Positions 11,881 through 39,136 of a stretch of DNA of 44,785 nucleotides are shown one piece after another. Numbering within the stretch: the stretch's first letter is position 1; each line of letters starts with the position of its first letter. The translations under genes and the position numbers were made by a program. Source of the DNA: Hyphomicrobiales bacterium (lineage in GTDB: Bacteria; Pseudomonadota; Alphaproteobacteria; Rhizobiales; Xanthobacteraceae); assembly GCA_019237215.1 (NCBI GenBank), contig JAFAHL010000443.1:1-44785 (forward strand). Reading direction: 5' to 3'. Under the pieces are notes generated by a model. It did not search any database, was not told where the DNA came from, and saw nothing but the letters and a program-made list of their open reading frames with translations.

Positions 11881-12046
11881 CTAGTGTGGTGGATTTGAAG
11901 TTCCTACGAGTATGCAGCAAGCTCGTATAGGAACTTCAAATCCAAAAACCACACTGGAGTCATAAGTTTGCTAGTGTCCCTTTGATTCCGAAGTTCGCAC
12001 GCGAGCGCGCTGCAAGGTCTTGCGAACTTCGGAATCGGGACACTAG
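11881..12046. repeat. 166-bp bipartite palindromic (BIME-like) element, copy 1
   Basis: Hairpin A 11881-11957 (ctagtgtggt ggatttgaagttcct.../...aggaacttcaaatcc aaaa accacactgg), spacer of about 13 bp, hairpin B 11971-12046 (ctagtgtccc ttt gattccgaagttcgca/tgcgaacttcggaatc gggacactag). Confidence 0.9.
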
Positions 12047-13113
12047 CGCCGAGCGAGCACGTACGCATCGACCACCGCCCAGGCTAGCGGCAATGTTACG
12101 CCCGGGCGCAGAACCTCGGGATCGCCGCCGACGATGCGCGCGCGCAGCGGCAGCCCGCGCGCCTTGCCGATCACCAGGATGGAATCGCCGTAGTTGATGA
12201 TGTCGTCGACCACGAGGTCGATCGCATTGTCGGCGCCGTCGGTCGCGCCGGGCGGGCGCAGCCGCAGGCGTTCCGGCCGGATCATGAGATCGACGTCGCC
12301 GGGCGGGAGCGTCGCTTGCTGGGCGACCCGCACCGGGCCGATCGCGGCGAGCTCGACCCATCCCGGACGCGACGGATCGACCCGACCGGCCAAGAAATTA
12401 CTGTCGCCGATGAATTCCCCGACGAAGCGGTTGGCCGGGCGGTTGTAGACGTCGAGCGGGGATCCGACTTGTTCGATCTTGCCGTTGCAGAATACGGCGA
12501 TGCGATCGGACATCGTCATCGCCTCGGTCTGGTCATGCGTGACGTAGATCATGGTGATGCCGATTTCGCGGTGGATGCGCTTGATCTCGACTTGCATCTG
12601 CTCGCGCAAATTCTTGTCGAGCGCGCCCAGCGGCTCGTCGAGCAAAAGCACGTCCGGATTGAACACGAGGCCGCGCGCGAGCGCGACACGCTGCTGCTGG
12701 CCGCCGGATAATTCGCGCGGATACCTGTCGGCGAACCGGCGCAAGCCCACGAGCTCGAGCATGTGCCGTGCGCGCTTTTCGATGTCGCTTTTGGGAAACC
12801 GCCGCATCTTGAGCGGAAACACCACGTTCTTCGCCGCCGTCATGTGCGGGAACAGGGCATAGTTCTGGAACACCATGCCGATGTTGCGCTCGTAGGGCTT
12901 GCTGCGAACGAGATCGTGTCCATCGAGTTCGATGACGCCGCTGGTTGGAGTCTCGAACCCGGCGATCATCAGCAGCGTGGTGGTCTTGCCGGAGCCGCTG
13001 GGGCCCAGCAACGTGACGAATTCCCCTCGCTCGACGTCGAGCGAGACATCGTCGACGGCGTTGCTCCTGCCGTCGTACGATTTCACGACTTGGCGCAGGC
13101 GAAGATAGGCCAC
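12043..13113 (-). CDS. ABC transporter ATP-binding protein, PotA-like
   Basis: 356 aa; GPSGSGKTTTL, ELSGGQQQRVALARGL, VLLLDEPLGALD, TOBE-like C-terminus. TAG stop lies inside hairpin B of the repeat. Confidence 0.93.
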   Translation of the reverse strand: MAYLRLRQVVKSYDGRSNAVDDVSLDVERGEFVTLLGPSGSGKTTTLLMIAGFETPTSGVIELDGHDLVRSKPYERNIGMVFQNYALFPHMTAAKNVVFPLKMRRFPKSDIEKRARHMLELVGLRRFADRYPRELSGGQQQRVALARGLVFNPDVLLLDEPLGALDKNLREQMQVEIKRIHREIGITMIYVTHDQTEAMTMSDRIAVFCNGKIEQVGSPLDVYNRPANRFVGEFIGDSNFLAGRVDPSRPGWVELAAIGPVRVAQQATLPPGDVDLMIRPERLRLRPPGATDGADNAIDLVVDDIINYGDSILVIGKARGLPLRARIVGGDPEVLRPGVTLPLAWAVVDAYVLARR

Positions 13114-35842: not shown

Positions 35843-37129
35843 CTAGCGCATCGTCGCGGGCAGCCAGAGCGCGATCTGCGGAAAAATCATCAGCAGCACG
35901 GTCGTGATCACGATCGACAGCATGAGGATGCTGGTTCCCTTGTAGACCTTCATGAGATCGACGCCCGCCGTCGCGCTCACGATGAACGCGACCAGGCCGA
36001 CCGGTGGGAACACGAGTCCCATCGCCACCATCATCATCGAGATCACCCCGAACCAGATCGGATCGAAGTCGAGCGAGGTGATCAGCGGGAAGGTGAGCTG
36101 GAGCGTGAGCAGCAGCAGGGGAATTTCGTCCATGAACATGCTGATGACGAAGTAGGCCACCACGATGCCGATGACGACCACCCAGCGATTGAGCTCCATG
36201 GCGATGACGGCGGTGACCACCTCCTGGGGAATGCGGCTCAATGCCATGTAGTAACCGAAGATCGTCGCGCCGAGGAGGATGAGAAAAATCATCGCCGAGG
36301 TACGAATGGTGGATTTCACGGCGTCGATCGCCTCCGCGAAAGTGAGGCGGCCGAATACTGCGCCGATCACGCCGGCGAGCAAGGCGCCGAGCGCGCCCAC
36401 CTCCGTCGGCGTCGCGACGCCGGTGTAGAGCAGCACCAGCACGAGCAGGATGAGCAGCAGGCTCGGCCAGATGCGCACGAGGCTCGCCCACCGTTCCTGC
36501 GCGCTGACGCGGTAGGTCGAGGGTGCGTGCTTGGGGCTGATGACGACCCACAGATAGACCATGACCGCGAGTAGGATGCCGGCGATGATTCCCGGCACGA
36601 CTCCGGCGATCAGCAGTTTGCCGATCGAGGTTTGGGTGGCGATGCCGTAGATCACCATGGCGATGCTCGGCGGGATCAAAATGTCGAGCGTCGCTCCGAT
36701 GCCGATCGCGCCGGCGGCGAGCTCGTCCGAATAGCCATGGCGGCGCATTTCCGGCATCGCGATCTTGGACATGACCGAAGCCGCGGCGGTGCTCGCGCCG
36801 GACATGGCGCCGAAAATGCCGCAAGCGAAGACGGTGGCGATGGCGAGCCCGCCCTTGATATGCGAACACCAGTTGCTGGCGGCGGCATAAAGGTCGCGGG
36901 CGAGCCCGCTCGAGGCGGAGAAGAACGCCATCAGGATGAACATGGGGATGGTAGTCAGCGCGTAGTCGGCAACCGTGCTGAACGGCGCCAGGCTGAGGAT
37001 GCCCATCACCTTGCTGGCGTCGCCGGTGACGAGATAGATGCCGAGCATGCCCGAGCCGGCGAGCGCGACCGCGATCGGCACGCCGAAGACGAGCGCAACA
37101 ACCAGCACCAGGAGGGGGAGAGCGACCAT
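35843..37129 (-). CDS. TRAP transporter large permease (DctM)
   Basis: 428 aa from ATG 37129 (MVALPLLVLVVALVFGVPIAVALAGSGMLG); IPMFILMAFFSASSGLARDLY, LDILIPPSIAMVIYG. Confidence 0.93.
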   Translation of the reverse strand: MVALPLLVLVVALVFGVPIAVALAGSGMLGIYLVTGDASKVMGILSLAPFSTVADYALTTIPMFILMAFFSASSGLARDLYAAASNWCSHIKGGLAIATVFACGIFGAMSGASTAAASVMSKIAMPEMRRHGYSDELAAGAIGIGATLDILIPPSIAMVIYGIATQTSIGKLLIAGVVPGIIAGILLAVMVYLWVVISPKHAPSTYRVSAQERWASLVRIWPSLLLILLVLVLLYTGVATPTEVGALGALLAGVIGAVFGRLTFAEAIDAVKSTIRTSAMIFLILLGATIFGYYMALSRIPQEVVTAVIAMELNRWVVVIGIVVAYFVISMFMDEIPLLLLTLQLTFPLITSLDFDPIWFGVISMMMVAMGLVFPPVGLVAFIVSATAGVDLMKVYKGTSILMLSIVITTVLLMIFPQIALWLPATMR

Positions 37130-37144
37130 CTGCGATCTTGGCGG

Positions 37145-37310
37145 CCAGTGTGGCGGTTCAGAAGTCCGCATCATTTTTGCAGCGAGTCCGAAATGCGGAC
37201 TTCTGAACCAAAGCCACACTAGATTAATAAGCTGCTAGTGTCCTTCGATTCCGAAAGTTTGCAGACGAGGCTGCGGCACAATGATGCGAACTTCGGAATC
37301 GGGACACTAG
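37145..37310. repeat. 166-bp bipartite palindromic (BIME-like) element, copy 2
   Basis: Hairpin A 37145-37222 (ccagtgtggc ggttcagaagtccgcat/atgcggacttctgaacc aaa gccacactag), spacer attaataagctg, hairpin B 37235-37310; the last 26 bp (tgcgaacttcggaatcgggacactag) are identical to copy 1. Confidence 0.9.
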
Positions 37311-37831
37311 GCGGACGGCGCCTCTTCCCTGAACAGATACGACCGGCCGCTGCGGATGCGCGTGAAGTCGATCAACATGAGAATAGTCAGCGCAAAAAAG
37401 CCCAAGGGGACGAGGCAGTAGGCCGGTCCGACCAAGAGCGGCAGCGCGCTCAGCGTCGTCTCCTCGCGCAGTCCGCGCAGCGCCTGCTGGCCGGTTGCCA
37501 CCAGCGTGATCAAGCAGAACAGCAGCGACACGAGGTGTGCGGCATAATTGACCGACAGCTGCAGCGGGCGAGACAGCCGGTCGACCAGGAACGTCACGCG
37601 GATGAAAACGCCGCCGCGATAGGCATATGAGAGCCCCAAAAAAATCGCCGCCACCATCAAGTACTTTTCAGTGATTTCGTAGGCGCCGGTGATCGGCCGA
37701 TTGAAAAGATAGCGGCTGAGCGCATCGGCGGATGTGAGACACATGATAGCGATGGTCGCGACCACGCTGGTGTAGACCAGCGCAAGCTCGCAGCACCACA
37801 ACACCTTGCCGATGGCGCGCAGGACGCTCAC
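37307..37831 (-). CDS. TRAP transporter small permease (DctQ)
   Basis: 174 aa with 4 TM helices; SADALSRYLFNRPITGAYEITEKYLMVAAIFLGLSYAYRGGVFIRVTFL. Confidence 0.9.
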   Translation of the reverse strand: MSVLRAIGKVLWCCELALVYTSVVATIAIMCLTSADALSRYLFNRPITGAYEITEKYLMVAAIFLGLSYAYRGGVFIRVTFLVDRLSRPLQLSVNYAAHLVSLLFCLITLVATGQQALRGLREETTLSALPLLVGPAYCLVPLGFFALTILMLIDFTRIRSGRSYLFREEAPSA

Positions 37832-37877: not shown

Positions 37878-38909
37878 CTAGTTCTTGAGCAGTTCGAGGG
37901 CGGCGTTGAGGATTTCGCGCGCGTTGGCGTGACCCTTGCCCTCCATCTTCTTCACCCACTCGTTCCAGATCGGCTCGCCCGCGAGCTTGGTCCAGCGCGC
38001 AAGCTCGTCGGGCGGGACCATATAACGGTTGAGCTCGTAGTTTCCGGCTTTGGCTCGCTCGATCACGCCTTGCTTCGCGGTATCGAAGAAATTCCTGCCC
38101 CAGAATTTTGCTCCCGTCAGACCGCTGACGGTCATGATCGCGCCGCGCACGTCCTGGGGCAGCGACTGCCACTTTTGCTTATTGGCGCACAGCGAGAAAT
38201 ACGCCGCGTAGAACGGGGCGATGGTGTAGTTTTTCGCCACCTCGTAGAGCCTGAATGCCTGCACCGCCTCCCACGGAGCGGCGGCGCCGTCGACCACGCC
38301 TTTATCGAGCGACTGGTAGACGTCGGGCATCGGAATCAGCGTCGGCACTGCTCCGAGCGCCTTGGCCATTTCGGTGGGTGGCCCGCCCAAGACGCGGAAC
38401 TTCAATCCCTTGAATTCATCGAGCGTGTTCACTTGCCGCTTGGAGACCAAGACGTTGGGCGAACTTGTGTAGAGGACGAGCGGCTCGATCTCGCTGTATT
38501 CCTTCTGCACCGCCGGGAATTTCTCATAGAGCTTCCAAAGCGCTTCGCTTCCCTTCTCGGCCGAGCTGATCGGCAAAAACGGCAGCGAGACGACGTCCGA
38601 CAACGGCGTCTGCTCGGGCCAATAGCCCTGCACGCACCAGCCGATATCGGCGATGCCGCCGCGGATGCCCTTCCACATGTCCACGCCCTTGATCAGGGTC
38701 TGCGATGGATAGATCTCGATCTTGACGCGGCCCTTGGTTGCCTCCTCGACCTGTTTCACCCAGGGCTGCAGCGCGTGCGAGGGCCCCCATCCGGTCGGAG
38801 AGTTCTGGTCGGCAAGCGTCAGCTTGATCTCTTGTGCCGCCGCCACCCCCGCCCAGGCAAAGGACGCAGCGATCAGACCGGCCAGGGCCAGGGTCTTTGT
38901 CTCGGGCAT
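37878..38909 (-). CDS. TRAP transporter substrate-binding protein (DctP family)
   Basis: 343 aa from ATG 38909; leader then EIKLTLADQNSPTGWGPSHALQPWVKQVEEATKGRVKIEIYPSQTL...FRVLGGPPTEMAKALGAVPTLIPMPDVYQSLDKGVVDGAAAPWEAV. Confidence 0.93.
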   Translation of the reverse strand: MPETKTLALAGLIAASFAWAGVAAAQEIKLTLADQNSPTGWGPSHALQPWVKQVEEATKGRVKIEIYPSQTLIKGVDMWKGIRGGIADIGWCVQGYWPEQTPLSDVVSLPFLPISSAEKGSEALWKLYEKFPAVQKEYSEIEPLVLYTSSPNVLVSKRQVNTLDEFKGLKFRVLGGPPTEMAKALGAVPTLIPMPDVYQSLDKGVVDGAAAPWEAVQAFRLYEVAKNYTIAPFYAAYFSLCANKQKWQSLPQDVRGAIMTVSGLTGAKFWGRNFFDTAKQGVIERAKAGNYELNRYMVPPDELARWTKLAGEPIWNEWVKKMEGKGHANAREILNAALELLKN

Positions 38910-39136
38910 GTTCACTCCCTTCCGCGTTAGTATTTTAATCGTTGACGCGCCCGCGCGCGCAGCGGTGGCGATAGTGCCGCTCCTCCCGCGCTCAGACAAG
39001 CGACATTGCGTGAGCCGCCCGCATCCCAAGCATCGGTGCAGCGCTCGGGATTGTTACTTGATGAGCCGGTTCGTATAGAGATCGTCCGCGACTTGAGCTT
39101 CGAGTCGCCGCGCGAGAATTCCTGCAGCTTGCCGAG

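What the first reader, a model, noticed from the sequence alone, without database searches (positions are those of the whole stretch)
37145..37310. Second copy of the 166-bp element with compensatory stem changes, splitting dctQ from dctM
Same length (166 bp), order and orientation as 11881-12046. Hairpin B right arms are identical over 26 bp (12021-12046 and 37285-37310). Hairpin A stems differ at about seven positions between copies, and at least five of these (T to C, A to T, T to C, T to A, T to C along the arm) are matched by complementary changes in the partner arm, which implies selection on, or template-switch maintenance of, the fold. The element sits between the TRAP small- and large-permease genes, which normally abut, so a structured insertion now lies inside a stoichiometric membrane complex operon.
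Basis: partly seen in the sequence, partly recalled or inferred. Interest (0 to 1): 0.7.

Follow-up and report, generated by a model that had tools for sequence, protein, structure and literature searches.

The report
Mobile double-hairpin DNA element, IS630-linked
The 166-base element between dctQ and dctM is one copy of a family of small, gene-less mobile DNA elements, widespread but patchy in Alphaproteobacteria, made of two inverted DNA hairpins and probably moved by an IS630-type transposase into CTAG sites, here at the dctQ stop codon.

Summary
Two 166-bp copies exist, in the same order and orientation. Hairpin B right arms are identical over 26 bp. Hairpin A stems differ at 9 positions, 7 of them fully compensated. 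Across 74 diverse copies, 96% of stem cells pair, 34 of 53 pairs show double changes, and all slid controls collapse.

The sister genome G005 has the empty dctQ-CTAG-dctM site, so the window copy is an insertion, not an ancestral spacer. G·T and A·C mismatches are equally rare (101:103), pointing to DNA-level rather than RNA-level pairing.

The element is two homologous hairpins in inverted orientation. Each outer arm is uninterrupted; each inner arm carries about 3 extra nt some 10 bp from its CTAG end. The host genome has a 1,186-bp IS630-family IS flanked by CTAG whose ends match outer arms at 18/22 positions. IS630 prefers TA in CTAG (literature).

Best reading: a non-autonomous, IS630-mobilised MITE with double-hairpin architecture. 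GANTC sites recur, recalling Caulobacter CIR repeats. How the hairpins stay complementary (selection for mobilisation or template switching) is unresolved. Host regulation at dctQM is untested.

The parts
37145..37310 (+). Full element, the copy asked about (CCAG...CTAG, 166 bp)
   Evidence: model R1 165 bits; empty site in G005
37145..37222 (+). Hairpin A: outer arm 37145-37171, loop 37172-37192, inner arm 37193-37222 with AAA bulge 37210-37212
37223..37234 (+). 12-nt spacer ATTAATAAGCTG between the hairpins
37235..37310 (+). Hairpin B: inner arm first, outer arm 37285-37310 identical to the other copy; GANTC sites at 37247 and 37296, a third in loop A at 37184
11881..12046 (+). Second copy in the window: hairpin A 11881-11957, spacer 11958-11970, hairpin B 11971-12046
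   Evidence: model R1 166.8 bits
37307..37310 (.). Terminal CTAG = target sequence; contains the dctQ stop codon TAG (minus strand), as in the empty site of G005
37307..37831 (-). dctQ, TRAP small permease; protein intact
   Evidence: Pfam PF04290 2.2e-24
35843..37129 (-). dctM, TRAP large permease; ATG at 37129, 177 nt after the dctQ stop (15 nt in G005)
   Evidence: Pfam PF06808 1e-76
37878..39029 (-). dctP, TRAP solute-binding protein, same operon
   Evidence: Pfam PF03480 1.1e-42

Best explanation
The element is a non-autonomous mobile DNA element (MITE) built of two homologous hairpins in inverted orientation. Its uninterrupted outer arms act as terminal inverted repeats for an IS630-family (Tc1/mariner-type) transposase supplied in trans, which inserts it at TA within CTAG. 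The inner arms carry about 3 extra nt some 10 bp from their CTAG ends; this probably stops them serving as transposon ends and leaves them as hairpin partners of the outer arms (inferred). Shown: repeat family, insertion at the dct locus, DNA-level covariation, CTAG ends, and an IS630 element with matching ends in the same genome. Inferred: mobilisation by that transposase group, and that complementarity is kept by selection on mobilisable source copies, possibly helped by hairpin-templated correction. At dctQM the insertion kept the dctQ stop codon but put dctM 162 nt further downstream; any effect on expression is untested.
For: Empty dct site with a single CTAG in G005. Ten further G000 copies have a full-length empty-site match in G005, and two insertions in relatives (L203, L267) have CTAG empty sites in other genomes. 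L007: GTAG became GTAG...CTAG, as TA duplication predicts. Insertion sites are mostly lineage-specific. Tandem copies share one CTAG. 53-pair fold with strong covariation; G-T and A-C mismatches equal, 101:103. IS630-family IS in the own genome (L402, 1,186 bp between CTAGs; NF033545 1.3e-85) with ends matching element outer arms at 18/22 each, 0 of 2000 shuffles. Other IS630 elements match at 15-16/22 (p 0.0005-0.004), one of them carrying the CTAGTGG..TAACA variant that also defines an element subfamily, while the L401 type does not match. G116 IS end CTAGTGTCCTGAACCGGAAGTTCG is 20/24 to the common B arm by eye.
Against: No IS630 DDE_3 gene was detected in copy-rich G003, G004, G016 and G031, and P0001 relatives were found in only 6 of 26 carriers. 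Two empty sites contain no TA (GCAG in three genomes for L332; TCGA in G005 for L329), and CTAC or CTGA occur at three others. IS ends have no inner arms, so the hairpins are not explained by the IS alone. No transposition was observed. G000 and its nearest relatives are fragmented assemblies.
Confidence: 0.72

Rival explanations
1. The element carries its own CTAG core and is integrated by a site-specific recombinase (tyrosine- or serine-type) through a 4-bp overlap that is usually CTAG, so the target 4-mer is replaced by the element's.
For: Filled sites show CTAG at both ends even where outgroups have GCAG (three genomes) or TCGA. In some copies the outer 4-mer changes together with the inner 4-mer, e.g. 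CTCG...CGAG.
Against: Most empty sites are CTAG or one base off. IS630 elements with matching ends exist. No recombinase gene was found linked to any copy.
Confidence: 0.1
2. A REPIN-like element moved by a RAYT (Y1 HUH transposase) that recognises the bulged single-stranded hairpins.
For: Two hairpins in inverted orientation with a bulge, tandem clusters and compensatory changes, as described for REPINs (PMC3116915).
Against: Y1_Tnp (PF01797) absent from G000, G004, G005, G016, G025 and G031, all with many copies. Ends are CTAG on both sides and paired, not an unpaired GTAG or CGTC tag. The IS630 match is specific.
Confidence: 0.04
3. A cis-acting RNA element (attenuator, processing or stabilising hairpin) kept by selection for host regulation at each locus.
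For: Stable fold; stems change more slowly than flanks in shared insertions, 3.1% against 6.1%; located between operon genes.
Against: No G-U preference, no terminator, no Rfam family, insertion sites mostly lineage-specific, orthologous sites empty.
Confidence: 0.07
4. The compensated stems come mainly from DNA template switching (one arm copied onto the other during replication) and need no selection on the fold.
For: 16 private compensated changes against 77 private one-sided changes, far above independent double mutation; the terminal 4-mer also changes in pairs; DNA-level symmetry of mismatches.
Against: In seven shared insertions 19 of 20 stem events are one-sided; private doubles may descend from unsampled source copies.
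Confidence: 0.3

Closest known systems
IS630-linked MITEs (e.g. RUP of S. pneumoniae with IS630-Spn1, as summarised in PMC2229807)
   Same: Short, non-coding, multicopy, TA at the ends, ends resembling an IS630-family IS in the same genome, empty sites in relatives
   Different: Two complete inverted hairpins with covarying stems and interrupted inner arms; specific CTAG target; spread over many alphaproteobacterial families
CIR elements of Caulobacter and Brucella (Chen and Shapiro 2003, via PMC2229807)
   Same: Two long stem-loops joined by a linker, GANTC sites, TA at the termini, intergenic, Alphaproteobacteria
   Different: CIR reported as about 110 bp with GANTC at a loop; here usually 166 bp (117-133 bp in G105) with GANTC in B stems, often also in loop A or spacer; sequences could not be compared (paper not held)
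REPINs / GTAG and CGTC REPs (PMC3116915, PMC3733652)
   Same: Inverted hairpin pairs acting as the unit, tandem clusters, compensatory changes
   Different: CTAG paired ends, stems of about 27 bp, no RAYT in many carriers, IS630-type ends
MITEPsy1 of Pseudomonas syringae (PMC3189936)
   Same: Short MITE inserting at CTAG (or YTAA)
   Different: IS5-type (ISPsy2) ends, single pair of inverted repeats, 4-bp duplication
RIME and Bru-RS palindromic repeats of Rhizobiales
   Same: Alphaproteobacterial intergenic palindromic repeats of similar size (from own knowledge; only citations seen)
   Different: Sequences not available here; relation not tested

Membership tests
IS630-linked MITE | Ends match terminal inverted repeats of an IS630-family IS | tested here: met
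   18/22 at both ends of L402 in the own genome, 0 of 2000 shuffles; two further ISs p 0.0005-0.004
IS630-linked MITE | TA target duplication | tested here: inconclusive
   CTAG targets and the L007 GTAG case fit; GCAG and TCGA empty sites do not
IS630-linked MITE | No coding capacity, multicopy, empty sites in relatives | tested here: met
   166 bp; about 25 copies or fragments; empty sites
IS630-linked MITE | Mobilised by the transposase in trans | not testable with these tools
   needs a transposition assay
IS630-linked MITE | An IS630 gene present in carrier genomes | tested here: inconclusive
   Present in G000, G005, G007, G010, G116; not detected in G003, G004, G016, G031
REPIN / RAYT | Y1_Tnp (RAYT) gene in carrier genomes | tested here: not met
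   PF01797 absent in G000, G004, G005, G016, G025, G031
REPIN / RAYT | Unpaired GTAG or CGTC tag at one end of the hairpin | tested here: not met
   CTAG at both ends, base-paired
CIR element | Two stem-loops joined by a linker, with GANTC | tested here: met
   definition from PMC2229807
CIR element | Sequence identity with CIR1-CIR4 | not testable with these tools
   CIR sequences not held
Known Rfam RNA family | Match above gathering score | tested here: not met
   no match in the window

The most novel reading that the evidence does not exclude
An IS630-type MITE family whose ends must be DNA hairpins: either the transposase (or a host factor) uses extruded or single-stranded hairpins, or hairpin-templated copying rewrites the inner arm whenever the outer arm tracks a new transposase specificity. 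This would be a DDE-mobilised element with structure-dependent or structure-driven co-evolution, possibly tied to CcrM methylation (GANTC kept through compensated swaps).
Probability: 0.25. Interest if true: 0.7.

Novelty: new variant of a known kind. Interest (0 to 1): 0.45.

Why it matters
It gives a candidate mobiliser, IS630, for a widespread class of alphaproteobacterial double-hairpin repeats that resembles the unexplained CIR elements. It is also a natural system, with dozens of copies and empty sites, for asking whether DNA hairpin complementarity in mobile repeats is kept by selection on mobilisation or by template-switch mutation. The CTAG target, often a gene's TAG stop codon, explains how such elements enter operons without destroying the upstream protein.

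Tried and rejected
RNA regulatory element: Rfam negative, no terminator, no G-U preference. RAYT/REPIN: no Y1 gene in many carriers. An autonomous copy with a gene between the hairpins: none among 113 GTDB stretches and the fetched relatives; nearly every apparent single hairpin has a partner, a truncated partner, or is a ~73-bp deletion chimera of two outer arms. Plasmids: no match. Classical 4-bp CTAG duplication: contradicted by L007. A flank all-against-all comparison was swamped by element copies and tandem arrays and was replaced by empty-site searches. Strict IS630 dependence in every carrier: not shown. Chen and Shapiro 2003 and Osteras 1995 were not held, so CIR and RIME sequences could not be compared.

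Full report
Observation. The window holds two 166-bp copies, 11881-12046 and 37145-37310. Hairpin A stems differ at 9 of 27 pairs; 7 are fully compensated, 2 are one-sided or unpaired. Hairpin B right arms are identical over 26 bp. The single-stranded fold of the 37145 copy has z = -10.7. The neighbours are dctQ, dctM and dctP by Pfam.

Family. The own genome (5.0 Mb, 794 contigs) has about 25 copies or fragments in at least two subfamilies. Relatives in the same genus and family have dozens. A 24-base arm pattern hit more than 113 stretches in named genomes. Most are Alphaproteobacteria (Bradyrhizobium, Afipia, Hyphomicrobium, Rhodoplanes, Nitrobacter, Caulobacter, Phenylobacterium, Magnetospira and others); a few records labelled Acidobacteria, Conexibacter or Solirubrobacter also matched, the last two only with degenerate palindromes. 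A covariance model found the family in 15 of 192 genomes drawn evenly over the class, so it is widespread but patchy.

Anatomy. From 219 full elements: each is two homologous hairpins, mostly 75-78 nt, in inverted orientation, joined usually by 12-13 nt. Both hairpins start and end in CTAG. The outer arm runs without interruption (CTAGTGTSSC plus 16-17 nt); the inner arm usually has 2-4 extra nt (AAA, GA, GAA and so on) 9-10 bp from its CTAG. One genome (G105) has a variant with tiny loops, 117-133 bp.

Covariation. On 74 diverse copies, 96.0% of stem cells pair (shuffled 86.0%, slid 23-41%). 34 of 53 pairs show double changes, 366 double-changed cells against 95 in shuffles, 0/500 shuffles reaching the observed values. 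One A-stem position uses all four Watson-Crick pairs. Mismatches are 101 G-T, 103 A-C and 197 others in 10,731 cells. An RNA fold under selection should favour G-U over A-C; this does not.

Insertion. G005 (about 95% identical DNA) has the dct locus empty...GATCTTGGCGG CTAG GCGGGCGG..., where the window has CCAG...CTAG. For ten further G000 copies G005 has a full-length empty-site match: L002, L004, L005, L006, L007, L019 and L324, L329, L332, L334. Two insertions in relatives (L203, L267) have CTAG at the empty site in other genomes, L203 in three. L007 was GTAG and became GTAG...CTAG, which fits TA duplication rather than 4-bp CTAG duplication. Exceptions: GCAG in three genomes (L332), TCGA in G005 (L329), CTAC twice, CTGA once, and L334 differs by a small deletion. 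CTAG is rare in the window (23 against 147 expected from base composition), so elevated loss of CTAG in outgroups may explain the single-base cases, but not easily GCAG or TCGA. Tandem copies share one CTAG (L058; L165 and L182).

Mobiliser. Y1/RAYT genes are absent from six copy-rich genomes. An IS630 search found, in the own genome, a 1,186-bp IS between CTAGs (L402). Its 386-aa open frame is IS630 family (NF033545, 1.3e-85; DDE_3). Its ends match element outer arms at 18/22 each (0 of 2000 shuffles). IS630 elements in the genome of L109 and in Bradyrhizobium pachyrhizi match at 15-16/22. The first carries the CTAGTGG..TAACA variant that also defines an element subfamily. A different IS630 type (L401) does not match. 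A relative in G116 (67% identical transposase) has an end CTAGTGTCCTGAACCGGAAGTTCG, 20/24 to the common B arm by eye. IS630 is known to prefer TA in CTAG (Tenzen and Ohtsubo 1991, seen as a cited title in PMC2170065). Several copy-rich genomes lack a detectable IS630 gene, so the link is strong but not universal.

How complementarity is kept. Seven insertions shared by G000 and G005 show 3.1% change in stems, 7.3% in unpaired parts and 6.1% in flanks (stem against flank p = 0.0025); 19 of 20 stem events are one-sided. Across all copies, 16 private changes are compensated and 77 one-sided. Post-insertion compensation is therefore rare, and the compensated differences mostly separate subfamilies, that is, source lineages. 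Selection on mobilisable copies and hairpin-templated correction both remain possible.

Methylation sites. GANTC (the CcrM site) occurs at 17.9/kb in elements and 4.6/kb in flanks. The B arm keeps GAWTC in 202 of 219 copies through a T-A/A-T swap. This and the two-arm design recall CIR repeats as summarised in PMC2229807; sequence identity with CIR could not be tested.

Local effect. The dctQ stop is the TAG of the CTAG both in the empty site and in the window. DctQ is intact, and dctM starts 177 nt instead of 15 nt after it. Loss of translational coupling is an inference to be tested. Over 355 intact ends, long open frames that end at the CTAG's TAG outnumber the other two frames (104 against 62 and 60), so stop codons are a frequent target.

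Noticed in passing
12043-12046 and 37307-37310: Both copies end where a minus-strand gene stops: the ABC transporter ATPase (12043-13113) and dctQ (37307-37831) both use the TAG inside the element's terminal CTAG as stop codon.
   Followed up: yes
whole window: CTAG is strongly depleted: 23 found against 147 expected from base composition and 50 from trinucleotides; six of the 23 belong to the two elements.
   Followed up: partly
L131, L147, L157, L194, L100; L095:6012-6082: Recurrent ~73-bp chimeras join one outer arm of each hairpin through a single loop, as if the inner arms and spacer were deleted precisely.
   Followed up: partly
L182:11-336 and L182:2159-2485: Two tandem dimers flank about 1.8 kb, a composite-transposon-like arrangement.
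   Followed up: no
L410-L417 (G105): Short-loop variant of 117-133 bp with the same two-hairpin design, about the reported size of CIR elements.
   Followed up: partly
L402:436-1621 and L406:130-1268 (own genome): Two different IS630-family ISs in the own genome, both flanked by CTAG.
   Followed up: partly
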